Source: Candidatus Hydrogenedentota bacterium | GTDB taxonomy: Bacteria; Hydrogenedentota; Hydrogenedentia; Hydrogenedentales; SLHB01 | Direction of reading: 5' to 3' | Assembly (NCBI GenBank): GCA_020848835.1 | Contig: JADLHJ010000113.1 | Span: 1 to 64,000 of the forward strand | Length of the DNA stretch: 64,000 bases | Part shown: positions 7,325-24,485 of the stretch, piece after piece | Layout of the letters: each line of letters opens with the position of its first letter | Numbering within the stretch: the first letter of the stretch is position 1 | The notes under the pieces: generated by a model | Databases searched by the model: none | Seen by the model: the letters and a program-made list of their open reading frames with translations, nothing else | Told to the model about the DNA's origin: nothing | Position numbers and translations under genes: made by a program

Positions 7325-7930
7325 ATGTTTGAAGGTAACGTACTAGTCCTGAACAAGTCCTGGGCCGCGGTGCACATCGCGTCAGCGCGGCGCGCCATGA
7401 CCCTGCTCTACGTGGGCGCGGCGCGGGCGGTGCATCCCAACCACTACTCCTTGCATGATTTCGAGGACTGGGTCGAACTGTCGCAAAACGGTTTGGGCGG
7501 GCGCTATATCCACACGCCGAACCTGCGCATTCGCGTGCCAGAAGTGATCCTGCTCACGCTGTTCAATGGCTTCATTCATCATGAGGTGCGCTTCTCGCGC
7601 CAAAGCATTTTCGAGCGCGACAAGATGACCTGCCAATACTGCGGGAAACATTTCTCGCGTTCGCAGCTCACGATCGATCACGTGATGCCGCAGTCGCGCG
7701 GCGGTGGCGACACCTGGGAAAACTTGGTGCTCGCGTGCCTACACTGCAACGTGCGCAAGGGCAACCGCACGCCCGACGAGGCGAATATGCCGCTGCTGAT
7801 CCGGCCGTACAAGCCCGCGTGGATGCCGCATTTCGGCGCGCGCGTGCCCGTGGATCAGTTGCAGGTATGGAAGAAATTCGTGGACACGAGTCATTGGACC
7901 GTGCCCGCGCGGGAGCAGGCCGCTTCCTGA
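7325..7930 (+). CDS. HNH endonuclease
   Basis: The 201-residue protein has an N-terminal region that begins VLNKSWAAVH and a C-terminal HNH/zinc domain. Two CxxC pairs (CQYC and CLHC) flank the motif IDHVMPQSRGG followed by WENLVLACLHCN. This is the common stand-alone bacterial HNH protein whose cellular role is poorly defined. GGAG lies just upstream of the ATG. No methyltransferase or other restriction-system gene is adjacent. Confidence 0.9.
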   Translation: MFEGNVLVLNKSWAAVHIASARRAMTLLYVGAARAVHPNHYSLHDFEDWVELSQNGLGGRYIHTPNLRIRVPEVILLTLFNGFIHHEVRFSRQSIFERDKMTCQYCGKHFSRSQLTIDHVMPQSRGGGDTWENLVLACLHCNVRKGNRTPDEANMPLLIRPYKPAWMPHFGARVPVDQLQVWKKFVDTSHWTVPAREQAAS

Positions 7931-7936
7931 GTTCGG

Positions 7937-8506
7937 CTACGTCGCTGTCGACGCCAATTGCTTCAAGAGCTCTTCCGCGTGTTTGGCGTCGCGCACATCC
8001 TTGAAACCCAAATCCTCGCGCCGGCGATCACCGTCCATATCGGTCCAATCTTCGTGGGCTATCACCACGTCGCCGAGACCGTTGCGGCCCTCGCGTCGAA
8101 AGACGTTCTTAAGTTTGTCCGGTGTGTACGATCGGACCGTCATGCCCCATAAATAATCAAAGGTGACCGCGCGCCGTTCGGTGATGACGTACGCGCTGTT
8201 CCGGGCCATGTAGTGCGACAGCAAGGGGGCCAACAACATGAACACGCCTATCAGCAAGAACGGCGCGCTGAGCAGCAACGCCACATTCGAGATTCCGGTG
8301 CGTTCGGGTCCATCGATGCCGGAGACTTCGTAGAGAAAAAAAAGGCAGAAGGCGATCCACGGAATGCCAAACAACATGGTGGCGGTCGCCTTCGGCGTGA
8401 AGAACCGCGCCACCGGCATCTCCATCCAAACGATCCGTTCGTCCGGCGCGAGTTCGCGTTCTACCGCCGCGCGCAACCGGCCGGGAAGATGTGTAGTGAT
8501 CGCCAT
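7937..8506 (-). CDS. PH-like domain membrane protein
   Basis: The 189-residue protein begins with an amphipathic region containing LAPDERIVWMEMP, followed by two hydrophobic segments (about residues 41-60 and 75-96). The cytosolic C-terminal part starts SAYVITERRAVTF and has a bacterial PH-domain-like beta pattern. The layout resembles bPH2-type membrane proteins. The function is unknown. It lies 68 bases downstream of the glycosyltransferase genes on the same strand and may be the last gene of that cluster. Confidence 0.7.
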   Translation of the reverse strand: MAITTHLPGRLRAAVERELAPDERIVWMEMPVARFFTPKATATMLFGIPWIAFCLFFLYEVSGIDGPERTGISNVALLLSAPFLLIGVFMLLAPLLSHYMARNSAYVITERRAVTFDYLWGMTVRSYTPDKLKNVFRREGRNGLGDVVIAHEDWTDMDGDRRREDLGFKDVRDAKHAEELLKQLASTAT

Positions 8507-8574
8507 ATCGTTGTTTCCGCGTTGCCCGTGCTCGTTGCGAGGCTACCGCGCTACGGGGACGTACTTCAAGTATA

Positions 8575-9819
8575 TCAGGCCAGCGCGTCCGCGCCTGATT
8601 CTGCAATGCGCTCGCATTCGCTTGCGGCGTTCACTGCGCCGTTGGTCGTGCGCACTTGATCGGCGTATTTGCGCGCGGCGTCGCGGTAGCGATCATTCTC
8701 GACAATATCGCGGAGAATACGCGCGAAACCTGCTGTGGCCGCGCGTTGTTTCAATATCCATTTGCAGAACCCCGCGCGCGCGGCGATGCGCGAATTGAGC
8801 ACCTGCTCGACGTGCGTGGGGACCGCAAGCATGGGCACGCCCGCGGCCAAAGCTTGATACATCGAACCGTTGCCGCCGTGGAAGATCATCGCTGAACAAT
8901 GCAGCAGCAATTCCGCGCCGGGGGCGTACTTCGTGAAGCGAAAGTTTTTGGGCGCGTTGCGCAAGGTCTCGTCGCTGACTTGTCCTGCGGTGGTCACGAC
9001 GTAGCGATAGGGCAGTGTAGACAACGCGCGATACGAGCGTTTAAGAAATGTATCGAAGCTGCCGGTCGATCCCATCGTGATGTAAACGTTCGGCGTCCCA
9101 TCGTCGAGTTCGCCAAACCAATCGGGAAGCGGTGCGGGAAAATCAAAGAGAATTGGACCCACTTGTATCGCGTTGTGAAAGTATGCGCAGGTGTCGTAGA
9201 GGCCGGGGATGTCGGGCGATAAGAGCGGAGCGCCGCGATACAGATCGATCGCGCGCACAGGCTTCACGCCGTGGCGCTTGTACACTTTGTTGCGTTGCGG
9301 GGCGAGAAAATTCCAGTCGTACCAACGCCACCAGTATCGGAAGTAAGGATAGCGCAGCACAAAATCCACCATGTAGGCGTTGTGAATATTGAGCGCGGGC
9401 ACGCCGGCGACGTATGCGGAATTGCTCATGGTCAGCGCGCCGCTGCCGATCACCGCGTCGGGCTGCTCGTCCTTGATGACGCGTATCTGGCTTTCCATAA
9501 TCGCATCGAAATCCGCCCACTTGCGCGGACGCGAAAACTCGATGTACATCCCCGCGAAGCCCCACTTCAGGATCGCGTCCCAGATGTATTCGAAGTTCGG
9601 CTCTTCCGCGTGTACGACGCGGAAGCCGTTGTCCTCGATCATGTGCATGCGCGAACGGCCCTGATCGGCGAGGCGGCCCGCGAAGACGACATCGTGGCCG
9701 CGCGCACGGAGGACCTTTGCGGTTTCGAGTGCGTGCGAAGAATGCGCGATGACGCTGGTCATCGGAAAGAACATGAACTTGCGCTTGCGCGCGGGCGGCG
9801 TGGTATTTAAAGCACCCAT
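8575..9819 (-). CDS. GT1-type (MGT-like) glycosyltransferase A
   Basis: The 414-residue enzyme has a GT-B fold. The N-terminal acceptor domain contains SSHALETAKVLRARGHDV. The C-terminal nucleotide-sugar domain contains IFHGGNGSMYQALAAGVP, the donor-binding signature of macrolide-type and UDP-glucosyl/rhamnosyl GT1 enzymes. It probably glycosylates a small lipophilic product such as that of the NRPS upstream. It is a paralogue of the adjacent glycosyltransferase B, with the same signature and near-identical spacing. The start at 9819 (MGALNTTPP) is preferred to an upstream ATG at 9906, whose added residues read like noncoding sequence over a small repeat. Confidence 0.85.
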   Translation of the reverse strand: MGALNTTPPARKRKFMFFPMTSVIAHSSHALETAKVLRARGHDVVFAGRLADQGRSRMHMIEDNGFRVVHAEEPNFEYIWDAILKWGFAGMYIEFSRPRKWADFDAIMESQIRVIKDEQPDAVIGSGALTMSNSAYVAGVPALNIHNAYMVDFVLRYPYFRYWWRWYDWNFLAPQRNKVYKRHGVKPVRAIDLYRGAPLLSPDIPGLYDTCAYFHNAIQVGPILFDFPAPLPDWFGELDDGTPNVYITMGSTGSFDTFLKRSYRALSTLPYRYVVTTAGQVSDETLRNAPKNFRFTKYAPGAELLLHCSAMIFHGGNGSMYQALAAGVPMLAVPTHVEQVLNSRIAARAGFCKWILKQRAATAGFARILRDIVENDRYRDAARKYADQVRTTNGAVNAASECERIAESGADALA

Positions 9820-9864
9820 ACTGGACTCTATTACGAAAACGTTTAGAGCGATACTTATAGTAGC

Positions 9865-9881
9865 GCGGGCGTCTCGCCTGC
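9865..9881. repeat. short dispersed hairpin, GCGGGCGTCTCGCCTGC type
   Basis: A 17-base imperfect palindrome in the gap between the two GT1 genes. A close relative lies at 21130-21147, where the sequence that follows also ends in CACCCA...TTCAAAA, so flanks are partly shared. Confidence 0.65.
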
Positions 9882-9918
9882 ACCCAATTTCAAAACACAA
9901 GAGCAAGAGATAAAAGAA

Positions 9919-11187
9919 CTAAACCAACGCGTGGCCCGCTGGCTTTGCGTCCCGGGCGATGCGCTCAAAGAGGTCGGCAGCGTTGGCAGCGCCGTTTGTG
10001 GTCTGCACGGCATTCGAGTAACGCTGTGCGGCTTCGCGGTATTTTGGGTTGTCAATCAACTCACGCAGGTTTTTGATCAATGCATTGGTGCGGAACCAGC
10101 GCGCATGCATGCGAATGCAGTAGCCGCGATCGACGGCAAAGTTGGTGATGAGGCCCTGCTCCTGGTGCGACGGCAACGCGAGCATGGGCACGCCCGCGGC
10201 AAGCGCCTGATACATCGAACCGTTGCCGCCGTGGAAGATCATCGCGCTGCACTTTTCCAGCAACTTCGATCCCGGCGCGTAGGCGCAAAGACAGAAATTT
10301 GCAGGGGCCATGCGCGCAGTTTCTTCGGTGACCTGGTTTGCAGTTGTCACGATGAAGCGGTAGGGCAGTTGAGAAAAGGCATCGTAGGTGCGGCGCAGAA
10401 ACGCATCGAGAAAGCCCGTAGAGCCCATCGTGATGTATACGTTGGTCTTTTCGTCGTCGAGTTCGCCATACCATTCCGGAAGTGGCGAAGGATGCTCGGC
10501 GAAGATCGGGCCGACGGTGTGATAATGCGGGAAGTACGATGGGTTTTCGTAAAGCCCTTCCAGATCGGGCGAAACCAGCGGAATCGATCTCAGCAGTCGC
10601 AACGCATTCACCGGTTTCTTAGCGAACGTGTTGAACGCGCGGCGGCGAATGGGTGCGAGATGAATGCCATCATATGCCAACAGTGCGGGATGGTAGAGGC
10701 AGCTTGACGTGAGGAAATGGCTCGCGTAACCATTCATGATTCCCGCCGCGGGGATGCCCGCGATGTACGCGGCAGTGCTCGCGCTGACCGACGCATCGCC
10801 GATGATAACGTGGGGACGCTCGCGCTCGATAGCACGCACTTGACCTTCAATGATTTCCTGTAGCGGCACCCAATTGCGCAGGCGCAAGAGGTCCCAACCG
10901 GAAATCAAAAAGCCGTACTTTTCAAAACGGTCCCAACCGTAGGGTTGATAGGGTTCCTTCGATGGAACGATGCGAAACCCTTCCTCGCGCACAAGCGATA
11001 ATTTCGAGCGCGGATGATCGGGGTCCTCACCAAGGAAAACAACTTCGTGCCCGCGCGCGCGCAGTTCCTTGGCGATTTCAAGACAACGCGACGTATGCGC
11101 GAGGACCCAGGAAAGCGGCGCGAACATGAATTTATAGCGCGGCACAGAATCCACATTCGACGCCGTTGGAATAATCTGCTGCCCCAT
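9919..11187 (-). CDS. GT1-type (MGT-like) glycosyltransferase B
   Basis: The 422-residue GT-B enzyme is paralogous to the next gene downstream. Both contain APLSWVLAHTSRCLEIAKEL-type N termini and the donor motif IFHGGNGSMYQALAAGVPML. It lies 23 bases after the NRPS stop, so it is very likely co-transcribed with it. The start at 11187 (MGQQIIP) is chosen; the in-frame ATG at 11229 (MGASPV) would overlap the NRPS end and cannot be excluded, since neither has a strong ribosome-binding site. The role is inferred to be sugar transfer to the NRPS product or to its glycosylated form. Confidence 0.85.
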   Translation of the reverse strand: MGQQIIPTASNVDSVPRYKFMFAPLSWVLAHTSRCLEIAKELRARGHEVVFLGEDPDHPRSKLSLVREEGFRIVPSKEPYQPYGWDRFEKYGFLISGWDLLRLRNWVPLQEIIEGQVRAIERERPHVIIGDASVSASTAAYIAGIPAAGIMNGYASHFLTSSCLYHPALLAYDGIHLAPIRRRAFNTFAKKPVNALRLLRSIPLVSPDLEGLYENPSYFPHYHTVGPIFAEHPSPLPEWYGELDDEKTNVYITMGSTGFLDAFLRRTYDAFSQLPYRFIVTTANQVTEETARMAPANFCLCAYAPGSKLLEKCSAMIFHGGNGSMYQALAAGVPMLALPSHQEQGLITNFAVDRGYCIRMHARWFRTNALIKNLRELIDNPKYREAAQRYSNAVQTTNGAANAADLFERIARDAKPAGHALV

Positions 11188-11210
11188 CGCCGCGCGTGTT
11201 CGCCCCGCGA

Positions 11211-14200
11211 TTACTGGGGAAGCGCCCATGAACTGCTGTCTGCCGCGTCGAGGCATTTCGCGAGCGTGGCGGCCACGTCCTTTGCCTGCGGGTCGGCGAG
11301 CATGGTGATGTGGTTGCCGGGAATCGGATACACGGCGACGGGCTGCGTGCTGAAGCGTTTCCACCCCAACGATTCGTCCGAGAATATCTTGCGAAATGCA
11401 CCTGATCGCGCGATGGTCGTGAGGTTGTCGCGCAGCATCTGCGGGAGTACGCGCAGCGTCATGCGCCAATTGCGTAACAGGGTCTTCCCAAGATTCGCGA
11501 GCGACTCCTGCAAAATACCCTCGGGAAGCGCAGTGAATAAATCGGCAGTCCGCAGGTAGGCAATCTTGCCGTCGTAGACTTTGGATTGATACTGCATCGT
11601 AGATTGCAGCGTGCGCTTGAAGTTTTCGACCATGCCGCGAATCGCGCCGGCGTCCGCGCTGGGCGCGACAAAGTTAATGCGCTTGAGCGCATCGAGCACG
11701 GTCTGCACTTGTTCATCCATTGGCATGGTGCGCAGCATGGCGTAGCTGATGTTGAGTTTCGTCGCGAAGAAATGTTCGACGAGCAGCACTACACTCGCGA
11801 GCCAGATCGAATCGTTTGTGACATCGACAATGACGCGGTACAACTCCTCGGAACGCGTGCCGGGAATCGGCGACATGCTGTCGAGCATGACGAGCAGCTT
11901 CACTTCCTCGCCCTGCGCGCGAAGTTGCTGCGCCATTTCAAAGGCGATGTTTCCACCGGAGGAATGGCCACCGAGCATGTAGGGACCGTGCGGCCGCACC
12001 TGGCGGATTGCTTCCACGTAGATGCGCGCGGCCTCTGGTATCGAATCAATCACCCTGCCGATACCGTCCACCGTCGGCGCTTGTACGCCGTAGAACGGGC
12101 GCTCCGGATCGAGGTGCGCGACAATGGGCATGTAGCAAAACACCGTGCCGGGCGCCGGATGTACGCAGAAGAACGGCGTCTTCGTTCCCGTCGGGCGTAA
12201 AGGCACGACAATTGGCGCGGGGCCGGAAGTCGCCGCGCGACGGATTAAACCTGCTTGCAATTCAATCGTCGGCGCGTCAAAGAGCGAAGCGGGGGATAGG
12301 CGCACGTCAAAATGCTTTTGGATCTGATCCATCAAATGCACGGCGGAAAGCGAGTGACCGCCGACGTCGAAGAAATGATCCGATACACCGACCGGACTCA
12401 CATCGAGGACGTGCTCCCAAATCTGCTGCAATTCGAGTTCGATGGCGTCGCGCGGGGCCGCGAGTTCGTTGTGCGTCTGCGATTCCCGCTCCGGTTTCGG
12501 TAACGCGGCGCGATCGATCTTGCCGTTCGTATTGAGCGGGATTTCATCAAGCGTCACATATGCGGCCGGCAACATGTATTCGGGCAAGAGCAGCCGCAGG
12601 TAGCCCTTCAGCTCGCCATCGAACTGTTGTCCTGCGCGTTTGGGCACAACGTACGCCACGAGTTTGGTGTCGCCTGTTGCATCTTGACGCGCATCGACCA
12701 CGCACTGATCAATTTCCGGATACTGCTTCAAGACCGATTCGATCTCGCCGAGTTCGATGCGATGGCCGCGTACCTTCACCTGATGATCGATGCGGCCAAG
12801 AAACTCGATGTTTCCGTCTTCGCGGAAACGCACGCGATCGCCGGATTTGTACAGGCGATCGCCGCTGGCACCGTTGAACGGGTTTGGCACAAAAGATTGC
12901 GCAGTGAGTTCAGGACGATTGAGATAACCGCGGCCTACGCCCGCGCCACCGATGTAGAGTTCGCCCGGAACGCCGGGAGGGACCATGCGCATGCGCTCAT
13001 CGAGGACGTAGAGTCGCGTGTTTGCGATGGGTCTTCCGATTGGCGGCGCTTCAACGGTATCGGGTTCGCAAATAGCCTCGGATACGCACACGGTCGTTTC
13101 TGTCGGGCCGTATGCGTTGAAAAAGCGGCGGCCCTTGGCCCAGCGTTTAACCAAATCCTGAGAGCAAACTTCTCCGCCGGACTCGACGATTTTGAGATCG
13201 GGAAGATCCGCATGCGGCAATGCACGCAACAACGAAGGCGTCGCCAATGCTGCATTGATGCGCTCGTCCTTCATCAATTGCAGCACATCATTGGGTGACT
13301 TCACTTTTTCCTGAGGTAGCAAGTAAAGCGTACTGCCGTTTGTGAGCGTAACAAAAATCTCAAGGACCGAAGGATCGAAGTTTAACGAACAGAACTGCAA
13401 CACGCGGCTGCCCGGCGCAAGGCCGTATTTGCGCGTCTTATGCGCGATGAGATTGCAGACGTTTCGATGCTCGAGCATGCTGCCTTTGGGCGTGCCCGTA
13501 GAACCCGATGTGTAGATCACATACGCAAGGTTTCTCGGATGGACTCCATTAACAGGGTCCTTGTCTTCGCGGGTGGCGATGCTGTCCCAATCGCGATCGA
13601 GGCTCACGACCGTTGCGCCGTTGGTCGGTAACGTTTCGCGCCGCGATTCGGTAGTCACGACGAAATGCACTTCGGCGTCTTGCAGCATGAACGCAAGGCG
13701 ATCGACGGGATACGCGGGATCGAGCGGAACGTATGCGCCGCCGGACTTCAGAATGCCAAGCAGACCAATCACCATTTCTGGCGAACGATCCACGCAGAGG
13801 CCGACCAATACTTCGCTTTCGACGCCAACGGATTTCAAATGATGCGCGAGCTGGTTTGCGCGCGTGTTGAGTTCGCGATACGTGAGCGTGCGGCCTTCGT
13901 AAGCGACGGCTATCGCGTCGGGCGTGCGCTCTGCCTGCGCTTCGACCAGTTGATGAATCGTCTTGTCGTCGGGGAACGGCGCATCGGTCGCGTTCCATTC
14001 GACAAGGAGGCGCTGCTTGTCATCGTCGGACAGTAATTCAATATCGCGAATCGGCGCGTCGGGATTGTCGAGCAGGGCGTGCGCCATGCGCTTGTAGTCG
14101 GTGACAAGAAGCCGGCGCATCTCTTCATCGAAAATAGAGCCGTTCACGATGAAGTAGTTGCCGAAATTACCCGTGTTGGGATTCTCGTAGAAATTCAGTA

Positions 14201-15329
14201 CGAGCGGATCAAGCACGTGCTGGAAGTCCGGCCAATGAAAATCGCAGGTGACGCCCGCAAACTGTGGCGCGGGAATGAACAGGCCGTTGAGCAAGACATC
14301 ATGGCCCTGCGTGTGCGCGAGGTTGTGAATGTAATAGGCGCTATTGCGCAGGTTCGCGGAAACTTCCGCGCCGATCTTTGCGATGAGCGTGTTGAGCGAA
14401 TCGCGGTCTTCGATCTCAATCGTCAAGGGCAACACGCCCATGAGAATGCCGTTGATCTGTTTGCGGCTGTCGTCGCGGCGGTTGTGGAAAGGCATGCCGA
14501 GCGAGGGTCTGCGCACGTCACAAATGCGGTTGAGGTACGCGAAGGTGATCGCGGCGAAGATGTTGAACTGCGCCGCGGGCGCGGACTTCGACGACGCGGA
14601 GACGTTCTCGATCATCGTACGAATCTGGCGCGAGATCTTCTCGCCCATATCCACATCCGCGCGGTGGATGGAACCAACGAGGCGTGGGACCGGTTTGCCA
14701 TAGAACGAAATCGGGTCCGGCTCCTGCGCGAACTTTTCTTCCCAGTACGCGCGCTGTTTCGGATCCGCGAGCACACCTCGTTGCTTCGTTTCCTCTTCAA
14801 CGTAGGACTGAAAAGACGGGAACGGTTCGAAAGCATCGAGCGAACCGGATAGCGCAGCTTCATAGAGCATCGCCATGTATTGAATGGCGATGAGGAAAGA
14901 AAACATGTCACAGATTATGTGATGCTGGCAGAAATACCAGACGTATTTTTCTTCCTCGAGTTTAACAAGTACAACGTCGAACAAGCGCACTTCGAAATTG
15001 AATCGTGTATGGCAGCGTTTGTCCGCCCACGACTTGTACGCGGCTAGCGGATCGGACTCTGCCGAGAAATCGTAGAATTCCGGCGTGTAATCGATGTGAT
15101 CCTGCACGCGCTGCATCGGCGCGCCACCATCGATCGTGATCGCCGTGCGCATGATGTCGCTGCAGTCGAGAAACTTTTGAAAGGCGGCGTTGAACGCTAC
15201 GCGATCAATATGCGCGGGAATGATGACACCAAGCGCGGAATGATACAGGGGCGTATCCGGGTTGAGTTGTTGACTCAACCACAATGCCAACTGCGTGCGC
15301 GTGAGGTTTGACCGATCAAACGCGTCCAA
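11211..15329 (-). CDS. single-module nonribosomal peptide synthetase, C-A-PCP-TE
   Basis: The 1372-residue protein has one complete module. The condensation domain (about 1-430) has the catalytic HHIICD at 136-141. The adenylation domain (about 450-950) has YTSGSTGTPKG at 606-616, NAYGPTETT near 738, GELYIGG near 789 and NTNGKIDR near 933. The carrier domain has GGHSL with the phosphopantetheine serine near 993. The thioesterase has GGHSSGG with nucleophile near 1123 and a histidine near the C terminus. A lone module with an N-terminal C domain and a releasing thioesterase suggests condensation of an acyl or carrier-bound donor with one amino acid. Aligning the pocket to GrsA by eye did not give a substrate I trust. 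It is flanked by glycosyltransferases and a hydrolase on the same strand. Confidence 0.95.
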   Translation of the reverse strand: MDAFDRSNLTRTQLALWLSQQLNPDTPLYHSALGVIIPAHIDRVAFNAAFQKFLDCSDIMRTAITIDGGAPMQRVQDHIDYTPEFYDFSAESDPLAAYKSWADKRCHTRFNFEVRLFDVVLVKLEEEKYVWYFCQHHIICDMFSFLIAIQYMAMLYEAALSGSLDAFEPFPSFQSYVEEETKQRGVLADPKQRAYWEEKFAQEPDPISFYGKPVPRLVGSIHRADVDMGEKISRQIRTMIENVSASSKSAPAAQFNIFAAITFAYLNRICDVRRPSLGMPFHNRRDDSRKQINGILMGVLPLTIEIEDRDSLNTLIAKIGAEVSANLRNSAYYIHNLAHTQGHDVLLNGLFIPAPQFAGVTCDFHWPDFQHVLDPLVLNFYENPNTGNFGNYFIVNGSIFDEEMRRLLVTDYKRMAHALLDNPDAPIRDIELLSDDDKQRLLVEWNATDAPFPDDKTIHQLVEAQAERTPDAIAVAYEGRTLTYRELNTRANQLAHHLKSVGVESEVLVGLCVDRSPEMVIGLLGILKSGGAYVPLDPAYPVDRLAFMLQDAEVHFVVTTESRRETLPTNGATVVSLDRDWDSIATREDKDPVNGVHPRNLAYVIYTSGSTGTPKGSMLEHRNVCNLIAHKTRKYGLAPGSRVLQFCSLNFDPSVLEIFVTLTNGSTLYLLPQEKVKSPNDVLQLMKDERINAALATPSLLRALPHADLPDLKIVESGGEVCSQDLVKRWAKGRRFFNAYGPTETTVCVSEAICEPDTVEAPPIGRPIANTRLYVLDERMRMVPPGVPGELYIGGAGVGRGYLNRPELTAQSFVPNPFNGASGDRLYKSGDRVRFREDGNIEFLGRIDHQVKVRGHRIELGEIESVLKQYPEIDQCVVDARQDATGDTKLVAYVVPKRAGQQFDGELKGYLRLLLPEYMLPAAYVTLDEIPLNTNGKIDRAALPKPERESQTHNELAAPRDAIELELQQIWEHVLDVSPVGVSDHFFDVGGHSLSAVHLMDQIQKHFDVRLSPASLFDAPTIELQAGLIRRAATSGPAPIVVPLRPTGTKTPFFCVHPAPGTVFCYMPIVAHLDPERPFYGVQAPTVDGIGRVIDSIPEAARIYVEAIRQVRPHGPYMLGGHSSGGNIAFEMAQQLRAQGEEVKLLVMLDSMSPIPGTRSEELYRVIVDVTNDSIWLASVVLLVEHFFATKLNISYAMLRTMPMDEQVQTVLDALKRINFVAPSADAGAIRGMVENFKRTLQSTMQYQSKVYDGKIAYLRTADLFTALPEGILQESLANLGKTLLRNWRMTLRVLPQMLRDNLTTIARSGAFRKIFSDESLGWKRFSTQPVAVYPIPGNHITMLADPQAKDVAATLAKCLDAADSSSWALPQ

Positions 15330-15367
15330 CGCTATGACTCCGTTCGTCCCTGATTACGAGGAGGTTG

Positions 15368-16321
15368 TTATTCGGTAACGGCCACGGCTTCGGAACGCGG
15401 CTCGACCGTGCGCCCGGTCGCCGTGTTCGCCGGTGTAAGCGGCACACCCAAACGCCGCAGTACCGGCCGGATTTCGTTTGCGAGCGTCGTGGCGAGTTCG
15501 CCGCGCTCCTTCAGATATCCGGGGCCATTGTGCCGGCCGGTGCGCAGCGGTACGAGCTTCACACCGGGAATCGATTTGCAAAGTTCTGCCTGGGCCGCAT
15601 CGGGCCGGCAGCGCGCACCATAGATAATCGTGCCGCTGGGGCGCGGTTCGGTGTCCCGGTAACGCGGGTAAACATCCCAAAAGGAGCGGATGTCGGAACG
15701 CGTGAGCGTATGCGCAATGACATTTGCGGCAAGCGCGACGAGGACCACTTCGATGTAATCGAGCGGGCGCGTGAACAGTAGGCCAAAATCCGCGAGCGCG
15801 CGGAGTTGCGGTCCCAAACCTGTCCAAACCGTCTCCGGAAACGCGGGGCTAAACCCGATCACGTGATCGAAGCCGCAACGCGTGCCGAAATAAAACGCGG
15901 CGCTGCCGCCACCGGATGCACCCATGCCGATATTGACGCGCGCGCCCAGTTGATTCTTCAATTCGGATACTTTTTTTGTGTAGTACTCGAGGCCATCCTG
16001 CGAGCCGCTGGGCGCGGTATGGTATGCGGAGCGGCGCAGTTCGCGGATGAATACGAAGTTCGCGTTGTGGCCGATGCCGTCGAGTTGCTTGCGGAACTCG
16101 AAGCGCGGCTCGCCCGCGAAAAGAACATCCATGCCGGAGAACACAAAAATGGTAACGTCCGCGCCATTGTCGTAGATGCGGAAGTATTCGGATTCGTCTG
16201 TGATCGCGCTGCTGCCCTCGAAAACCTGGAAAGTCCCTTCCTGTTCCATGTTGCGCGCAAGGCTCGGCAGGAACAGTTTGGTCAGGACGCGAAACGATTT
16301 TTCTTTGATTGCAGTGATCAC
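15368..16321 (-). CDS. alpha/beta-hydrolase fold protein of the NRPS cluster
   Basis: The 317-residue protein has the nucleophile elbow GMGASGGGSAAFYFG near the middle and a candidate catalytic histidine in RTGRHNGPG near residue 270. There is no signal peptide. It could be an acyltransferase, a proofreading thioesterase or an esterase for the NRPS product; the sequence does not decide. It lies 38 bases upstream of the NRPS and 12 bases downstream of the GT4 gene, so co-transcription is likely. Confidence 0.75.
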   Translation of the reverse strand: MITAIKEKSFRVLTKLFLPSLARNMEQEGTFQVFEGSSAITDESEYFRIYDNGADVTIFVFSGMDVLFAGEPRFEFRKQLDGIGHNANFVFIRELRRSAYHTAPSGSQDGLEYYTKKVSELKNQLGARVNIGMGASGGGSAAFYFGTRCGFDHVIGFSPAFPETVWTGLGPQLRALADFGLLFTRPLDYIEVVLVALAANVIAHTLTRSDIRSFWDVYPRYRDTEPRPSGTIIYGARCRPDAAQAELCKSIPGVKLVPLRTGRHNGPGYLKERGELATTLANEIRPVLRRLGVPLTPANTATGRTVEPRSEAVAVTE

Positions 16322-16333
16322 GTGTTTTGACTC

Positions 16334-17470
16334 TTAGTGGCGCTGATTGCCCAGTACGATTTCATATCCCTCGCGGACTGCGCGCGCCTGCGCGTCCAGC
16401 GAGAAGGTGGAGACAGCTTTATCGCGTGCGGCGCGGCCCATTTGCGCGCAACGCGCAGGGTCCACGGCAAGTTGCTGCAGTGCCGTAAACAACCCATTGG
16501 GCGAACCGTCGCAAACAAATCCGTCTACACCAGCATTCACAATCTCGGGCAACATGCCGCGATCGGAGACCACCGCCGGTTTGCCCATGGCCATCGCCTC
16601 GCGCACCGCGCGGCAGGTGCCGTCGCTGCCCGGAACCAGAAACACCTTCGTGTCGAAGGCCTTTACCATGCCTACGTAATCATCCCCGCTGACGTACCCC
16701 GGAAAATGTACGCGCTCTGACAGCCCGAGTGCGCGTGCGGGCGCCTTCCCGACCGATTCCTGGTTGGTGCCACGACCGACTACTATAGCATGTGCGTCCA
16801 CCCCCTCGTCAGTGAGGAGGCGGATTGCCTGGAAGAAGTCTTCGTATCGCCGGTGCGTCTGCATACGTGCAACAATGCCTATCACAAAAGCTTGCGCCGA
16901 AATTCCTAATCGTTCCCGTCCATCGGGGACTTGCCGGGCGGGGTCGAAACGCCGCACATCTATAGCCCCTGGAACTACTTGCATAGACTCAAGGGGGTAT
17001 CCATAGGTTTCAAGGTCGTGGCGGAGGGCCACTTGGGAGGGCTGGTAAATGCGGGCCGTTCCTTTAATTAGGGGGCGGTGCCTGCGCAGGTTGGTCATGC
17101 CAAGCCCTTCGTAGCTGCTGCGCACTACGGGGATTTTCAGCTTTCGCGAGGCGGCCAAGGCGATGCGGTGGTCGTTGTCGAGGTGGCAGTGGATCAGGTC
17201 GTAGGGACGCTTAGACAGAAAACTGGAGAGCGCCCGCGCGTCCAGAAAATTCGCGAAGGGGTTCTCGTGCTTGTTCAGGCGGAAGTCGAGGATCGGCTCG
17301 ATGCCGCGCTCCCGGGCCGTATCGCGCAGGGTGTGCTGCCGGCCTTTGGGTAGATCGGGAAACGCCAAGTCCGCCTCAACGCCGAGCGTGCGCAACGTGA
17401 CGCAAAGATTCAACGCCAACTCGGCGGGACCGGTGAACTTCGCGTTGCTAAAAAGGTGGAGGACTTTCAT
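16334..17470 (-). CDS. GT4 family glycosyltransferase
   Basis: The 378-residue GT-B glycosyltransferase has an N-terminal MKVLHLFSNAKFTGPAE start, a central GIVARMQTHRRYEDFFQA segment typical of GT4 nucleotide-sugar binding, and a C-terminal active-site region reading DGTCRAVREAMAMGKP. The usual E-x7-E motif is D-x7-E here, so the first acidic residue is conservatively replaced. It starts 18 bases after the smc stop codon, placing the biosynthetic cluster directly downstream of a housekeeping gene. Confidence 0.88.
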   Translation of the reverse strand: MKVLHLFSNAKFTGPAELALNLCVTLRTLGVEADLAFPDLPKGRQHTLRDTARERGIEPILDFRLNKHENPFANFLDARALSSFLSKRPYDLIHCHLDNDHRIALAASRKLKIPVVRSSYEGLGMTNLRRHRPLIKGTARIYQPSQVALRHDLETYGYPLESMQVVPGAIDVRRFDPARQVPDGRERLGISAQAFVIGIVARMQTHRRYEDFFQAIRLLTDEGVDAHAIVVGRGTNQESVGKAPARALGLSERVHFPGYVSGDDYVGMVKAFDTKVFLVPGSDGTCRAVREAMAMGKPAVVSDRGMLPEIVNAGVDGFVCDGSPNGLFTALQQLAVDPARCAQMGRAARDKAVSTFSLDAQARAVREGYEIVLGNQRH

Positions 17471-17488
17471 GGCTGTAACACAGCCGCG

Positions 17489-20400
17489 CTATTTCCCGTT
17501 AAACTTCACGCTGACCAATTGCGATACGCCTCGTTCCTGCTGGGTCACGCCGTAGAGGGCGTCGGCTTTGGCCATGGTCTGTTTGTTGTGGGTGATGACA
17601 ACGAACTGGCTTTGGTCGACGAACTCTTCCAATAAGCTGAGGAAACGGCCGATGTTGGCGTCGTCGAGGGGCGCGTCCACTTCGTCCAGCACGCAGAAGG
17701 GGCTGGGCTTGGCTTTGAAAATACTGAAGAGCAGCGCGACCGCGGTCATCGCACTCTCACCGCCGGAGAGCAGCGAGATCGACGTAGGCTTCTTACCGGG
17801 AGGGCGCGCTTCGATTTCAATGCCGCTTTCGAGCGGATCGTCTTCGCTCACGAGGTAAACGCGCGCCTGGCCGCCGTTGAACAAGCGGCGGAAGAAATGG
17901 CCGAAGTTCTCGCCGATCTTGTTGAACGTTTCCATGAACATATCGCGGATGCGCTTGTCGCTGCGTTCGATCACGCCGAGCAATGCTTCACGCGCCTGGT
18001 TCAGATCGCGCATCTGCGTGTGTAAGAACGCATGGCGCTTCTCGAGTTCTTCGTACTCTTCGATCGCGGTGAGGTTCACATCGCCCATCTTTTGCAATTT
18101 GCCGCGGATGTCCGTGACGAGTTGCGTGCGCGTGTCTTCGTCGTATTCGTCGGTGCCGACCTGCTCCGCGTTGAGCGCCGCGAGGGACACGGCGTATTCG
18201 CTGGCGATGCGTTCCTGGAAAAAGCCTACGCGGTCTTCGTCGTGGCGCAACGCCATCTCGATGCGGTGTACGTCCGCCTGCGCGCCACGTGCAATGTCGC
18301 GCTGTTCTTTGAGTTCCCTGTCGAGCGCGTCGGTTTCATCGAGCAAGGTCTGCAACTGGTTCTGCGCTTCGACGGCCTTCTTCGACGCTTCTTCGCGCGT
18401 CTCCGAAAGACCTGACGAACGCTCTATCAGTTGCGTGACCTCGTGGTCGACGTTTTCCTGCTCTTTGGTCAGCGTTTCGATCAACTGATCGCGCTGCTCC
18501 GCCGCGGCGAGGGCCTGATCGCGGTCGCGCGACTCACGCTGGCGATCGCGTTCGATTTCTTCCAAGCGCTGCACGAGCGCGGCTTGGTTTACGCGAAGAT
18601 CGGCAAGCTCGCTCGCGAGGACCGATAGTGTCTCACGCGCGGACGACGCGGCTTCCTGTGCGTCGGACATTTCGACTTGCAACGCTTCATCGCCGCTCTG
18701 GATCGTGTCCGCGCGCAGCATCGCTTCTTTGCGCTGATCCTCGAGTTGGTTGCGGCGCGCGCTGAGTTCGTCGCGCTGGCGATCGATGGCGTGGCCCGCG
18801 TCAACGACATTGTCTAGTTCAGTGCTCTGCCGCGCGATGTCCACACCGAGATCGTTGATCTCCTTGCGGAGCGCGTTAAGGTTCGTTTCGAGTTGCGAAA
18901 TTTCGGATGACGCCGCGGCGATTGCCTGATTGATTCCATTCCGTTGATCGACCAGCGCGCCGAGGTCTTGTTCCATCGTGCGCACGCGGTCTTCGAGTTC
19001 GGTAATTTCCGCGCTACGGCCGAGTAGGCCGCGGCTTTCGTGTTTCGTGCGGCCACCCGTCACCGCACCCGCGGACGACACGACATCGCCGTCGAGCGTA
19101 ACGAGGCGCGGGTGGTGCTGGCGGCTGCGCGTGATGCGGATCGCGTCGTCGAGCGTTTCGACGATGACGGTGCTGTGCAGCAGGTATTCGACGGCGCTTT
19201 GCAGGCGCGAATCATAGCGCACGAAATCGATCGCAGGGCCGACGACACCGGCTTGTCCCGCGAGTGCGCTGCTATCGTCGCGCATGCCGCCGCGCATGGT
19301 GTCGAGCGGCAGGAAGGTAACGCGGCCCGCTGTATTGCGCTTGAGAAATTCGATCGCTTGCTTCGCGTTGTCGGCATTTTCGGATACAACGTTGTTGATG
19401 TTGCCGCCAAGTGCCGCTTCGATCGCGCGCTCGTATTCTTTGTCGGAAGAGAGCAGATCGCCAACAGGGCCGATGATTCCGCGCAGTTCGCCAGCGTCGC
19501 GCGCTTTCATCACCGCCTTCACGCCAAACGCGAAACCTTCGTAGGTGTCGCGCAATTCACGCAACGACTTCAGGCGTGCATCGACGCTGCTCTTCTCTTC
19601 GCGCATCACGCGCCAGCGTTCGTCTACTTCCTGCAAACTCTTCTGGTGGCCCGTGCGCGCGGAGACGGTTTGTTCGCGGCGCGAATCCTGATCGGCGTAA
19701 GACGCCAGCTTTTCCGATTCCGCACGGCGCGCCGTCTCAAGGATTGCAAGCAATTCTTCGCGACGCTTGGTCAGGCGGTCCTGATTCTCGTATAAGCCTG
19801 TCAATAACCCATCGACGCTCGCGATACTTTCCGCGAGCGTTTCCAACGCAGACTGCGTGCGCGCGCGATCCGTTACGCGCTCGGTAACCTGCGCGCGAAT
19901 CTTTTCTAAATTGGCATCCGCCTGCGATACCAATTCAAGCGCCGTGGCGTGCGCGGCATTTTTCTCCGCGATTGCCTGTACACCCGCGTCGATCTCCGCG
20001 CGGGCGATGATGGCACGCTCATCGGTCTGCGCAGTCTGCGCCGCGAGTGTTGCGGCGCGCGCGAGCAGTTCATCACGATCGGAGTTGGCTTCCTCGCTGC
20101 GGCTTTTTGCGTATTCCATTTGCTGACGGTGCAACGCAATCTGCCGTTCGATCTTGTCCATCTCAGACTCGATCTCGTACACCGCTTGCTGCCGCGTGAG
20201 CCGCACACGTTCGACTTCGAGCCGTTGCAATCCGATCTCTTCGTGGCGCGCTTCAAGCGTGGAGATGCGTGCGGATACGCCTTCATATTGATCGCGCGCA
20301 ACGGCGAACTCGCCGCGCAGCGTTTCGATCTCCGACGTTAAGCGAACAAATTCCATCCACGCCGCGCGGATTTCGATCTCGCGCAGTTGTTCGCTGAGTT

Positions 20401-21049
20401 CGCGGTAGCGAATCGCCGCATTCACCTGGCGTTTGAGCGAGCGCATCTGCCGCTCGACTTCGTTCACGATATCGCTGAGGCGCAATAGATTCTGCTCGGC
20501 GGATTCGAGACGGCGGATCGCGAGCTTTTTGCGCGTCTTGTATTTGATGATCCCCGCGGCTTCCTCGAACAAATAGCGGCGGTCTTCGGGCTTCGAGGAC
20601 AGGATCATGTCCATCTTGCCCTGGCTCACCATCGAATAGGCCTGAGTGCCGATGCCGGTGTCCATGAACATCTCATGGATGTCCTTGAGGCGGCACGGCG
20701 CTTTGTTGATCAGGTATTCGCTTTCACCCGAGCGATACACGCGGCGCGTAATCTGCACTTCGGAGAAATCGACGGGCAATTTGGAATCGGAGTTATCGAA
20801 AGTAACCGACACTTCCGCCATGCCTGCGGGGTGGCGGTTTTCGCTGCCGTTGAAGACGACGTCCTGCATGTGCGAACCGCGCAATTCCTTCGCGCGTTGT
20901 TCGCCCAGCACCCAGCGCAGCGAATCGAGGATATTGCTCTTACCGCAACCGTTCGGCCCGACGATCGCAGTGATCCCCGGTTCGAGACGGACCATCGTGC
21001 GGTCCGCAAAAGATTTGAAACCAATCAGCTCAAGCTGTTTGAAGTACAT
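17489..21049 (-). CDS. smc: chromosome segregation protein SMC
   Basis: Condensin ATPase that organises and segregates the chromosome. The 1186-residue protein has Walker A GPNGCGKSN at 31-39, a long coiled coil interrupted by a hinge (around 510-660), and the C-terminal signature LSGGESAMTAVALLF and Walker B FCVLDEVDAPLDD. The length is standard. No scpA or scpB genes are in the window. It lies between ymdB and the glycosyltransferase/NRPS genes. Confidence 0.97.
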   Translation of the reverse strand: MYFKQLELIGFKSFADRTMVRLEPGITAIVGPNGCGKSNILDSLRWVLGEQRAKELRGSHMQDVVFNGSENRHPAGMAEVSVTFDNSDSKLPVDFSEVQITRRVYRSGESEYLINKAPCRLKDIHEMFMDTGIGTQAYSMVSQGKMDMILSSKPEDRRYLFEEAAGIIKYKTRKKLAIRRLESAEQNLLRLSDIVNEVERQMRSLKRQVNAAIRYRELSEQLREIEIRAAWMEFVRLTSEIETLRGEFAVARDQYEGVSARISTLEARHEEIGLQRLEVERVRLTRQQAVYEIESEMDKIERQIALHRQQMEYAKSRSEEANSDRDELLARAATLAAQTAQTDERAIIARAEIDAGVQAIAEKNAAHATALELVSQADANLEKIRAQVTERVTDRARTQSALETLAESIASVDGLLTGLYENQDRLTKRREELLAILETARRAESEKLASYADQDSRREQTVSARTGHQKSLQEVDERWRVMREEKSSVDARLKSLRELRDTYEGFAFGVKAVMKARDAGELRGIIGPVGDLLSSDKEYERAIEAALGGNINNVVSENADNAKQAIEFLKRNTAGRVTFLPLDTMRGGMRDDSSALAGQAGVVGPAIDFVRYDSRLQSAVEYLLHSTVIVETLDDAIRITRSRQHHPRLVTLDGDVVSSAGAVTGGRTKHESRGLLGRSAEITELEDRVRTMEQDLGALVDQRNGINQAIAAASSEISQLETNLNALRKEINDLGVDIARQSTELDNVVDAGHAIDRQRDELSARRNQLEDQRKEAMLRADTIQSGDEALQVEMSDAQEAASSARETLSVLASELADLRVNQAALVQRLEEIERDRQRESRDRDQALAAAEQRDQLIETLTKEQENVDHEVTQLIERSSGLSETREEASKKAVEAQNQLQTLLDETDALDRELKEQRDIARGAQADVHRIEMALRHDEDRVGFFQERIASEYAVSLAALNAEQVGTDEYDEDTRTQLVTDIRGKLQKMGDVNLTAIEEYEELEKRHAFLHTQMRDLNQAREALLGVIERSDKRIRDMFMETFNKIGENFGHFFRRLFNGGQARVYLVSEDDPLESGIEIEARPPGKKPTSISLLSGGESAMTAVALLFSIFKAKPSPFCVLDEVDAPLDDANIGRFLSLLEEFVDQSQFVVITHNKQTMAKADALYGVTQQERGVSQLVSVKFNGK

Positions 21050-21129
21050 CTATATCAACCAACCCCGCATCAAAATAGTCGATGCATCGTATTGCCGCGA
21101 TGCGCGATAAACGTATTGCTTATTGTGGT

Positions 21130-21147
21130 GCGGGCGTCCTCGCCTGC
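21130..21147. repeat. short dispersed hairpin, second copy
   Basis: An imperfect palindrome GCGGGCGTCCTCGCCTGC in the ymdB-smc gap, related to the copy at 9865-9881. Both are followed within 25 bases by CACCCA and TTCAAAA. Confidence 0.6.
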
Positions 21148-21234
21148 ACGCTTCTGCACCCACTTCAAAAACTGCAGCCCAGACGGCCACACCATAATGG
21201 CTTTAAGCACCGAAGCCATTACATCGTTTTTTAA

Positions 21235-22017
21235 CTATCGATTTTCCACGTATACCCGCGTGATTGAATTCGACTTTCCGGTAGCATCGTCGATATCAAT
21301 CACCACACCATTCAACGCAGGCCGTCCCTCGGCAACGGTATGTTTGCCGGGAAGACCGGTCATAAACTTTCGAATACTCTCCGCAGCGTCGAGACCGATC
21401 ACCGAATCGTGCGGACCGGTCATACCCACATCCGTGATAAACGCCGTGCCTCTCGGCATGATGCGTTCATCCGCGGTCTGCACGTGTGTGTGCGTGCCCA
21501 CAATCGCGCTGCACTTGCCATCCAGATGCCACGCCATCGCAGCCTTCTCGGCCGTTGCTTCCGCGTGAAAATCGACAAACACCACCGGGGTCTGCGCGCG
21601 CAACTCGCCGCACAAATGCGCGCCCACCACAAACGGATCGTCGAACGCTTCCATGTACACGCGACCGATCAAATTCACGATCGCCGCCTTGCGCCCGTCC
21701 GGCAGTGTAAACACCATGCTACCGCGTCCGGGCACCCCTGCGGGATAATTCGCGGGCCGGATCACCTGCGTCATTGAATCGATCTCGGGCAGCAGTTCTT
21801 TCTTGCGCCACGTATGGTTGCCCATCGTGATCACCTGCACCCCGGATTGAAGCAACTCGCGAATCAGCGGTGGAGTCGCCCCCAAACCGCCCGCGGCATT
21901 TTCCCCGTTTGCGATCGTCAAATCAATGCGATGCTCTTCACGCAACGCAGGCAGCAGACGCTTGACGCAGTCCCGCCCGGCGCCCGCGACGACGTCGCCG
22001 ATAAACAGAATCCGCAA
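21235..22017 (-). CDS. ymdB: YmdB-family metallophosphoesterase (TIGR00282 type)
   Basis: The 260-residue protein begins MRILFIGDVVAGAGRD and contains ANGENAAGG, TMGNHTW and GTHTHVQTADE, the dimetal-site motifs of this family. Characterised members hydrolyse 2',3'-cyclic nucleotides. Adjacency to rny (12 bases) is widely conserved and suggests a link to RNA turnover. The gene is on the rny-smc transcription unit. Confidence 0.93.
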   Translation of the reverse strand: MRILFIGDVVAGAGRDCVKRLLPALREEHRIDLTIANGENAAGGLGATPPLIRELLQSGVQVITMGNHTWRKKELLPEIDSMTQVIRPANYPAGVPGRGSMVFTLPDGRKAAIVNLIGRVYMEAFDDPFVVGAHLCGELRAQTPVVFVDFHAEATAEKAAMAWHLDGKCSAIVGTHTHVQTADERIMPRGTAFITDVGMTGPHDSVIGLDAAESIRKFMTGLPGKHTVAEGRPALNGVVIDIDDATGKSNSITRVYVENR

Positions 22018-22029
22018 CGGCGGCCCCGG

Positions 22030-23598
22030 CTACTTCGCCAATTCGGTGGCGCGCGTTTCCCGGACTACCGTGACGCGAATCTGGCCCGGATACGTCATCT
22101 CGGCTTCGACGCGCCGCGCAACGTCACGCGCAAGCTGCAAGGCCTCCGCGTCGTTTATGCGCTCCGGCAATACCGCAATGCGGATCTCACGACCCGCCTG
22201 CAAGGCGTAGGAACGATCGACACCGGGGAATTCGTTTGCGATCTTTTCAAGCTGTTCGAGACGCTTGATATAAGTCTCGACCGTCTCACGGCGTGCGCCG
22301 GGGCGTGCCGCGCTGAGCGCGTCCGCCGCCTGCACGATTAGCGCCATGACGGTCTTCTGTTCCATTTCGTTGTGATGTGCGCCCACCGCGTTGGCGATGG
22401 CATCGGTCTCACCAAACTTCTTGCAAAAGTCGTGACCGATGATCGCGTGCGAACCTTCCATCTCGTGGCTCACGGCCTTGCCGATATCGTGGATCAGCGC
22501 GCCGCGTTTGCACTCGGCGATGTTCATGCCTAGTTCGGCAGCCATAATTGCGGCTAGGTGCGCGACTTCCATCGAGTGCTTGAGCACGTTCTGGCCGTAA
22601 GACGTGCGGTAGCCAAGGCGTCCCAGCAACTTCACGAGTTCCGGGTGAAGACCGTGCACATCGACTTCAAGGCAAGCCTGTTCACCCATTTCCTTGATGG
22701 TCTGCGCGAGTTCTTCTTTTACTTTTTCGACCACTTCCTCGATGCGCGCGGGGTGGATGCGCCCATCGGAGATCAGGCGTTCGAGCGAGATACGCGCGAC
22801 TTCGCGGCGCACCGGGTCGAACCCGGAGAGGATAACCGCCTCGGGCGTGTCGTCGATGATGACGTTGATGCCCGTCGCCGCCTCGAGCGCGCGGATGTTG
22901 CGCCCTTCACGGCCGATGATGCGCCCCTTCATTTCGTCGGAGGGCAACGGCACCATCGACACCGTCGATTCGGTCACATGGTCTGCGGCGCAACGCTGGA
23001 TCGCCTGGCCGATGATCCACTTTGCCTTCTTGTCCGCGTTTTCGACCAGCTCTTCTTCGACGCGTTTCAGGCGTAGGGCCGAGTCGCGGCGTACTTCCGT
23101 CTCAAGCTGGTGGAACAGCTCCTTACGGGCATCGTCGGCACTAAGGCCGGAAATGACTTCCAGCTTCTGGGTCTGGTCGGCGATCAGCGCTTCGAGGCGT
23201 TCGCTCTTTTTCGTGAGCGACGCATCCCGCTGCTGCAGGTCGCGGTCCTTTTGCTGGATTTCGAGCGCCTTCTTCTCGATTTGCTCGGCGCGCTTGTCAA
23301 CAGTGTCTTCTTTCGCGACAATGCGCTTTTCTAGCGCGACCAGCTCCTTGCGGAGTTCCCGCGCTTCGCGTTCCGCTTCTTCCCGAAGTTGGATACGCTG
23401 TTCTTTGAGGGTTGTGTTGGACTCTTTGAGGATCGAGGCCGCTTCTCGTTCTGCGTCAGAAATGGTCTGGGCCGCCTGGCGGCGCGCCGTACCCATCAGA
23501 TTCTTGCCCATAATACTGGCGCCAAGCACGGTTGCGATGACGCCAACGAGTATACCGGCCCCAATCCAAACGATAATCATGATCGTTGGATCAGGCAT
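22030..23598 (-). CDS. rny: ribonuclease Y
   Basis: Endoribonuclease that initiates mRNA decay at the membrane. The 522-residue protein has an N-terminal transmembrane helix (about residues 5-25), a long coiled coil to about residue 200, a KH domain with [15 protein letters not shown], and an HD domain with [10 protein letters not shown] and [13 protein letters not shown] lies 9 bases upstream of the ATG. A strong promoter lies about 260 bases upstream, beyond a structured leader or ncRNA. Confidence 0.96.
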
Positions 23599-23639
23599 GG
23601 AAAAACCTCCGTCCCAATAAGGATGACTAAACTACCCGG

Positions 23640-23849
23640 TTCGTCCCCGATGACGGACCAGAGGGAGGAGGCCCTGCGGCTCAAAATACTACAACTAGCT
23701 GTCAGTTATGACTTTGGAAAGGGATAACCCTTGCTCCGAAAACATTCCCTAACGCTAACAAAACCGCTGCCGCGGTGAGCTACACACATCCGACCGGTTC
23801 CCCTGTCACGAGGACTCAACAAATGGGGCGACGCCGCTGGCTCCACCCC
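23640..23849 (-). ncRNA. candidate structured RNA upstream of rny (6S-like location) or long rny leader
   Basis: This roughly 200-base minus-strand region has no convincing protein but is preceded by a near-consensus sigma-70 promoter. Reading from about 23849 downwards it contains three hairpins: GGGGTG with CGCCCC, ACCGC-GGCA-GCGGT, and AAGGG-TTAT-CCCTT. The segment CAAGGGTTA resembles the 3' side of the E. coli 6S RNA bubble, and 6S genes are often found near zapA or rny in other bacteria. I could not fold a full 6S rod, so a long rny leader is an equal possibility. The 3' end is a guess. Confidence 0.4.
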
Positions 23850-23855
23850 GTGTGA

Positions 23856-23884
23856 AGTATAGGTATCGGTTCGTCTAATGTCAA
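23856..23884 (-). promoter_or_regulatory. consensus sigma-70 promoter for the RNA/rny region
   Basis: On the minus strand, -35 TTGACA (23879-23884) and -10 TATACT (23856-23861) are separated by exactly 17 bases. Transcription should begin near 23849. The -35 matches the consensus completely and the -10 differs by one base. Confidence 0.85.
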
Positions 23885-24020
23885 TCTCACGAAAGAGATC
23901 GTACCTCCGGATGTCGGGACTTTTGGTCCGTCGGGAGAGAAGAGAAATTACCGGACAAAATTGCCATTTCTAAAAACGCCGGGTGCGTGCTAAGCTATCC
24001 AATGGGCAGGGGGATACGTA

Positions 24021-24485
24021 GTGAAGGCTGAGCTCGTCAATCCGTTCATTGAAAGTATCTTTGAATTGTTCAACACCATGCTTGGCGCGAAAGTCGAACG
24101 CACAGGCATGCGCATCTCTGACGGACAGAAGCAGCCCGCCGAAGTCATGGCTTTGATTGGTTTTAGTGGGGTTGTGCAGGGCACGGTCGGTTTGGCTCTG
24201 CCCACCGAAACCTGTTCGGCAATGATTGATCGGCTGCTTGGCCACGCCGCCGACTACAGTCCAGACACCATCAGCGACACCATTGGGGAGCTGGTAAACA
24301 TCGTCGCGGGGTCGGCCAAAGCAAAAATCTCACTTAAAGTCCATGAAACATTAGATTTAAGCCTGCCAATCGTCTTTACCGGCTCCAGCTACGAAGTATA
24401 TTCCCCGTCTAATGCCACCTGGCTTGAAGTTCCCTTCTCGAGCGAACTAGGCGACCTTTCACTTCGCCTAACTTTCCCTGACTAA
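24021..24485 (+). CDS. cheX: chemotaxis phosphatase CheX
   Basis: Dephosphorylates CheY-P in chemotaxis. The 154-residue protein has the CheC/CheX pattern with a single active helix DTIGELVNIVAGSAK, where the glutamate and asparagine form the ExxN phosphatase motif. It begins with GTG behind AGGGGG. No other che gene is in the window. It is transcribed divergently from the rny region. Confidence 0.9.
   Translation: MKAELVNPFIESIFELFNTMLGAKVERTGMRISDGQKQPAEVMALIGFSGVVQGTVGLALPTETCSAMIDRLLGHAADYSPDTISDTIGELVNIVAGSAKAKISLKVHETLDLSLPIVFTGSSYEVYSPSNATWLEVPFSSELGDLSLRLTFPD

What the first reader, a model, noticed from the sequence alone, without database searches (positions are those of the whole stretch)
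8575..17470. Compact one-module NRPS cluster with three glycosyltransferases and a hydrolase
One complete C-A-PCP-TE module is flanked on one strand by a GT4, an alpha/beta hydrolase and two tandem GT1 enzymes. The simplest product would be a glycosylated, acylated amino acid or dipeptide. I do not recognise this combination as a described pathway, but cannot search.
Basis: partly seen in the sequence, partly recalled or inferred. Interest (0 to 1): 0.75.

Follow-up and report, generated by a model that had tools for sequence, protein, structure and literature searches.

The report
One-module NRPS glycolipid-like cluster in Hydrogenedentota
An uncultured bacterium carries a small, intact and conserved set of genes that probably links an acyl group to one amino acid and then adds sugar; the chemistry is familiar, but the gene combination, which includes a hydrolase family found only in this lineage, was not found described.

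Summary
On the minus strand, 17470-8575, lie GT4, an alpha/beta hydrolase (HYD), one C-A-T-TE NRPS and two GT1 genes; the NRPS and HYD active-site motifs are intact. The genome belongs to candidate phylum Hydrogenedentota.

Two corrections follow from comparing relatives. First, the GT4 is not a cluster gene. It is a near-universal gene of the order (56 of 68 genomes) that usually sits directly after SMC in a conserved RNaseY-YmdB-SMC-GT4 block. The variable insert is HYD-NRPS-GT1a-GT1b (8575-16321). Second, the insert is not unique to this genome: six genomes of the same family carry the NRPS at this same site, and HYD and NRPS are under purifying selection.

HYD has no Pfam, NCBIfam or PDB sequence match. 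It folds as an alpha/beta hydrolase with an invariant Ser-Asp-His, and was found in 23 of 68 genomes of the order and none of 318 outside it. In other families of the order HYD is translationally coupled to a GT1 without an NRPS, so HYD+GT1 looks like the older pair, to which an NRPS was added.

Best reading: biosynthesis of a glycosylated N-acyl amino acid (aminolipid). The product is unproven. New variant of a known kind, moderately interesting.

The parts
15368..16321 (-). HYD: lineage-restricted alpha/beta-hydrolase-like enzyme, catalytic S136/D241/H264
   Evidence: conserved next to NRPS in 5 genomes and next to GT1 in other families
11211..15329 (-). One-module NRPS, C-A-T-TE, 1372 aa; pocket residues D P L L V S A V C K (anchored by hand)
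   Evidence: orthologues in 6 genomes
9919..11187 (-). GT1a glycosyltransferase (EryCIII/MGT-like donor half), the GT1 whose closest relatives accompany the NRPS in G005/G021 and occur in G024
8575..9819 (-). GT1b glycosyltransferase; its clade-mates are GT1 copies elsewhere in G000 and G001, not the NRPS-linked ones
16334..17470 (-). GT4 glycosyltransferase; order-wide SMC-linked gene, probably not part of the pathway
   Evidence: 56 of 68 order genomes, following SMC in 9 of 12 inspected loci that lack the NRPS
17489..23598 (-). Conserved housekeeping block upstream: RNase Y (22030-23598), YmdB-like phosphodiesterase (21235-22017), SMC (17489-21049)
23856..23884 (-). Sigma70-like promoter match TTGACA-17-TATACT (11 of 12) upstream of RNase Y, the only minus-strand match in 7900-24200
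   Evidence: consensus match only

Best explanation
HYD-NRPS-GT1a(-GT1b) is a small biosynthetic insert placed after the conserved SMC-GT4 block in one family of Hydrogenedentota. The NRPS loads one amino acid (A to T). Its N-terminal C domain condenses that amino acid with an acyl donor made elsewhere (acyl-ACP or acyl-CoA), and its TE releases or cyclises the N-acyl amino acid. One or two GT1 enzymes then glycosylate it. HYD is a Ser-Asp-His enzyme that trims or transfers the acyl or aminoacyl group on the glycoside; it is inherited from an older HYD+GT1 partnership of the order. Shown: the genes, intact motifs, conserved order, purifying selection, and HYD-GT1 coupling without an NRPS elsewhere. 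Inferred: the acyl donor, the amino acid (an aromatic or large hydrophobic residue is my guess), the order of steps, and the reaction of HYD.
For: C-A-T-TE with all motifs intact. EntF, a whole C-A-T-TE chain, is among the better PDB matches of both the C domain and the TE. An Sfp-sized (226 aa) PPTase is encoded in the genome. The NRPS sits at the same site in 6 genomes, with HYD in 5 and a same-strand GT1 directly after it in 4 (G000, G005, G021, G008). dN/dS: HYD 0.114, NRPS 0.104. HYD and GT1 co-occur in 15 of 23 HYD genomes against 3 of 45 without HYD (Fisher p 6e-7; by genus p 9e-4). HYD-GT1 overlap by ATGA in three other genomes. Other HYD copies lie beside AMP-binding (PaaK-like or acyl-CoA) ligases, a PlsC-like acyltransferase, GT2 and GT9, so acyl activation plus glycosyl transfer is the recurrent context. 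In G005/G021 the A-domain pocket is D-A-S-T-V-A-A-V-C-K, close to aromatic-type codes as I remember them.
Against: No acyl-CoA ligase, ACP, ketosynthase or exporter lies in the insert. The pocket code differs between orthologues (DPLLVSAVCK, DPCLISAVCK, DASTVAAVCK, DAMLVVAVYK), so the amino acid may not be conserved. G008 has NRPS and GT1 but no HYD at the locus, and in G001 the nearby GT1 is on the other strand and only 39% identical to GT1b. No MbtH was found, although many A domains do not need one. The C-domain donor type was not determined.
Confidence: 0.5

Rival explanations
1. The NRPS acts like EntF or SwrW: the TE holds and oligomerises several acyl-aminoacyl units into a macrolactone, and the GT1s glycosylate the ring. 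HYD is then the esterase that opens it.
For: Same C-A-T-TE layout as EntF, which is a hit for the whole protein, the C domain and the TE, and as serrawettin W1 synthetase SwrW (PMC7767323). An esterase partner would fit an ester-linked product.
Against: Macrolactonisation of this kind needs a hydroxy amino acid (Ser/Thr) or a 3-hydroxyacyl group. The hand-read pocket code is not Ser-like, from memory. No receptor, exporter or iron genes were seen in the insert.
Confidence: 0.15
2. HYD is an external proofreading (type II) thioesterase for the NRPS carrier domain.
For: Type II thioesterases are alpha/beta hydrolases commonly found beside NRPS genes (general knowledge).
Against: HYD does not match Pfam Thioesterase PF00975, while the NRPS's own TE domain does. 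Most of its 29 copies have no NRPS beside them.
Confidence: 0.1
3. HYD+GT1 is an RhlA-RhlB-like pair: HYD makes a hydroxyacyl acceptor and GT1 glycosylates it, and the NRPS adds an amino acid to the same glycolipid.
For: Two-gene alpha/beta-hydrolase plus GT1 order with ATGA overlaps, parallel to the rhlAB operon (PMC6669457). Weak GT1 similarity to solved rhamnosyltransferases.
Against: Foldseek's 50 best hits for HYD are mostly esterases, lipases and dehalogenases, with no RhlA listed. No sequence hit in PDB. GT1 similarity is stronger to calicheamicin and macrolide glycosyltransferases.
Confidence: 0.15
4. The genes are unrelated neighbours carried in one transcription unit with SMC, not one pathway.
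For: The GT4 is an independent gene. GT1 and HYD both occur separately elsewhere. The only minus-strand promoter match lies upstream of RNase Y.
Against: The HYD-NRPS-GT1 order is kept in G005 and G021 with NRPS identity to the window down to about 50%, and HYD-GT1 linkage recurs in other families at different sites.
Confidence: 0.1

Closest known systems
Serrawettin W1 (serratamolide) synthetase SwrW
   Same: A single C-A-T-TE NRPS making a small aminolipid (PMC7767323; PMC3353980)
   Different: No lineage-specific hydrolase or GT1 partners are described in the passages read; SwrW's own sequence was not compared here
Enterobactin synthase EntF
   Same: C-A-T-TE domain order; hits for the whole protein, the C domain and the TE
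   Different: Different context: no catecholate genes in the insert; GT partners and HYD are absent from EntF operons (general knowledge)
Rhamnolipid RhlA-RhlB pair
   Same: Two-gene order of an alpha/beta-hydrolase-fold enzyme and a sugar transferase; works-like analogy only (PMC6669457)
   Different: No detectable relation of HYD to RhlA in sequence or in the fold-search hits listed; an NRPS is added
Macrolide/calicheamicin-type GT1 glycosyltransferases (TIGR01426, CalG1)
   Same: Donor-binding half matches
   Different: Far below the family cut-off (97.8 against 260 bits); acceptor half not recognised, so the acceptor is unknown

Membership tests
Unimodular NRPS (C-A-T-TE) | One each of condensation, adenylation, carrier and thioesterase domains in that order | tested here: met
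   Pfam hits above cut-off for all
Unimodular NRPS (C-A-T-TE) | Catalytic motifs intact in every domain | tested here: met
   HHxxxD, YTSGSTGxPKG, GGHSL, GHSSG, NGKID
Unimodular NRPS (C-A-T-TE) | A PPTase in the genome able to activate the carrier domain | tested here: inconclusive
   One PF01648 hit over cut-off, 226-aa gene: present, but its activity on this carrier domain is untested
SwrW-type aminolipid synthetase | C domain accepts a 3-hydroxyacyl donor; A domain loads Ser | not testable with these tools
   Donor unknown; the hand-read A pocket DPLLVSAVCK gives no reliable substrate
Alpha/beta hydrolase superfamily (HYD) | Nucleophile elbow G-x-S-x-G, acid and His in the alpha/beta order | tested here: met
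   G134-S136-G138, D241, H264 invariant in 27/27; fold matches
Type II thioesterase (PF00975) | Match to the thioesterase family | tested here: not met
   No Pfam or NCBIfam hit for HYD
RhlA (rhamnolipid) | Sequence or structure similarity to RhlA | tested here: inconclusive
   No PDB sequence hit; RhlA not among the 50 best fold matches shown
MGT macrolide glycosyltransferase (TIGR01426) | Score above the curated cut-off | tested here: not met
   GT1b 97.8 and GT1a 95.5 bits against 260
Known MIBiG cluster | Matching gene set and product | not testable with these tools
   MIBiG and antiSMASH not available; text searches of open-access papers found no described Hydrogenedentota cluster of this kind

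The most novel reading that the evidence does not exclude
HYD founds a new lineage-restricted enzyme family that, with GT1, makes an acylated glycoside peculiar to Hydrogenedentota. In this family an NRPS has been inserted between the two genes, and the set is expressed with the SMC/RNase Y operon, so the product would be a constitutive envelope glyco-aminolipid, not an inducible secondary metabolite.
Probability: 0.2. Interest if true: 0.6.

Novelty: new variant of a known kind. Interest (0 to 1): 0.38.

Why it matters
No described natural-product pathway from Hydrogenedentota was found in the papers searched. At four genes this cluster is small enough to express whole, and HYD is a testable founder of a family with no Pfam model. 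The comparison also shows a natural experiment: the same hydrolase and glycosyltransferase with and without an NRPS between them.

Tried and rejected
GT4 as a pathway gene: rejected, since it is found in 56 of 68 order genomes and is linked to SMC. GT1a/GT1b as a recent tandem duplication: rejected by the tree. HYD as a classical type II thioesterase: rejected on family match. HYD spread widely in bacteria: not found in 318 genomes outside the order, and the genome-contig scan gave only Hydrogenedentota plus one weak 75-residue Streptomyces hit. Searching papers for the exact pocket code gave nothing. The full HYD alignment was too divergent for the DNA scan, so a closer subset was used. Plasmid collection: only distant GT1 matches (roughly 24-34% identity in the rows listed), uninformative.

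Full report
Observation. The window is contig 113 of a 6.13-Mb, 120-contig genome assembly. The closest matching public records of the HYD gene are MAGs of Candidatus Hydrogenedentota. On the minus strand I find, in transcription order, RNase Y (22030-23598), a YmdB-like phosphodiesterase (21235-22017), SMC (17489-21049), GT4 (16334-17470), HYD (15368-16321), an NRPS (11211-15329), GT1a (9919-11187) and GT1b (8575-9819), with gaps of about 12-38 bp between GT4, HYD, NRPS and GT1a. The NRPS contains one C, A, T and TE domain, each above its Pfam cut-off, with catalytic motifs intact.

HYD. No Pfam, NCBIfam or PDB sequence matches at normal thresholds. Some relatives give sub-threshold hits to UPF0227 and alpha/beta-hydrolase models. 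Across 27 homologues G134-x-S136-x-G138, D241 and H264 are invariant. An AlphaFold model from eight sequences (pLDDT 77.5) matches alpha/beta-hydrolase-fold proteins among the listed hits, chiefly lipases, esterases and dehalogenases, at modest TM-scores (0.38-0.53). So HYD is very likely a Ser-Asp-His alpha/beta hydrolase; what it acts on is unknown. It was found in 23 of the 68 genomes of this order and in none of 318 genomes outside it.

What belongs to the cluster. The GT4 has single strong matches in 56 of 68 order genomes and follows SMC in nine of the twelve order loci lacking the NRPS that I opened; in two it does not, and in one the contig begins at GT4. It is part of an old RNaseY-YmdB-SMC-GT4 block. 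The NRPS orthologue is present in six genomes of one family (G000, G001, G005, G008, G021, G024), always directly downstream of that block, with HYD between in all but G008. A same-strand GT1 follows in G000, G005, G021 and G008. In G001 a diverged GT1 lies about 1 kb further on the opposite strand behind a short-chain dehydrogenase; in G024 the contig ends inside the NRPS. G018 has SMC-GT4-HYD without the NRPS. The insert is therefore HYD-NRPS-GT1.

Constraint. Against sister genome G001, dN/dS is 0.114 for HYD and 0.104 for the NRPS, near the GT4's 0.117, though synonymous sites are close to saturation (dS 1.3-1.9). NRPS frames are open in relatives. These are functional genes.

An older pair. 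In families f4, f7 and f11 HYD is followed by the same GT1 family with no NRPS between (L038, L053-L056). In three of these the two genes overlap by ATGA. HYD and GT1 co-occur far more than expected (15 genomes with both, 8 HYD only, 3 GT1 only, 42 neither; Fisher p 6e-7; collapsed to genera p 9e-4, not corrected for deeper phylogeny). Other HYD copies adjoin a GT2, a PaaK-like AMP-binding enzyme with a GT9, a PlsC-like acyltransferase with an acyl-CoA synthetase, or a sulfotransferase. The recurring theme is acyl activation or transfer together with glycosyl transfer. I infer that the NRPS joined a pre-existing acyl/glycosyl machine.

GT1 history. In an ML tree GT1a groups with the GT1s of G005, G021 and G024 (99/97), while GT1b groups with copies elsewhere in G000 and G001 (100/99). 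The tandem pair is thus two old paralogues; GT1a is the better candidate for the core pathway. Donor halves match antibiotic GT1s (CalG1, OleD-type), the acceptor halves do not.

Chemistry. Pocket residues, anchored by hand on conserved motifs, read DPLLVSAVCK in the window, DPCLISAVCK in G001, DASTVAAVCK in G005/G021 and DAMLVVAVYK in G008. The third resembles aromatic codes as I remember them; the window's own code gives no safe prediction. One Sfp-sized PPTase and no MbtH are in the genome. With a lone N-terminal C domain the minimal product is an N-acyl amino acid, released by TE and glycosylated by GT1a/b. The known system that works most like this NRPS is the SwrW aminolipid synthetase (C-A-T-TE; PMC7767323), and EntF is the nearest solved module of that layout by C-domain score. 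Neither is known to me to pair with a HYD-like enzyme.

Verdict. Real, intact and conserved. It is ordinary in its building blocks and new as a combination as far as I could test; the product is unknown. MIBiG was not available, so novelty rests on text searches and on the lineage restriction of HYD.

Noticed in passing
window 17489-23598 and loci L105, L108-L111, L113, L118, L119: RNaseY-YmdB-SMC-GT4 is a conserved synteny block across the order (YmdB or RNase Y lie off the contig or the stretch in some loci); an SMC-linked GT4 of unknown role is itself unexplained.
   Followed up: partly
L102:882-6365 and L103 (G000 contigs 49 and 54): The same genome has at least two further NRPS loci: a 1827-aa protein with two C domains and a TE, and one with two A domains and a TE. 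One-module C-A-T-TE paralogues also occur in G005 (L116) and G024 (L121).
   Followed up: partly
L158:5365-9425 (G000 contig 27): A third GT1 copy sits beside a 737-aa fusion of a PlsC-like acyltransferase and a serine hydrolase, an esterase and an alginate-export-like protein; the neighbourhood is conserved in G001 (L159).
   Followed up: partly
L052, L058, L059: A second HYD subtype lies beside a PaaK-like adenylate-forming enzyme and a GT9 in three genomes.
   Followed up: partly
window 23856-23884: A strong sigma70-like promoter match (11 of 12) upstream of RNase Y, while the region has fewer promoter matches than its shuffles (3 against a mean of 6.5).
   Followed up: no
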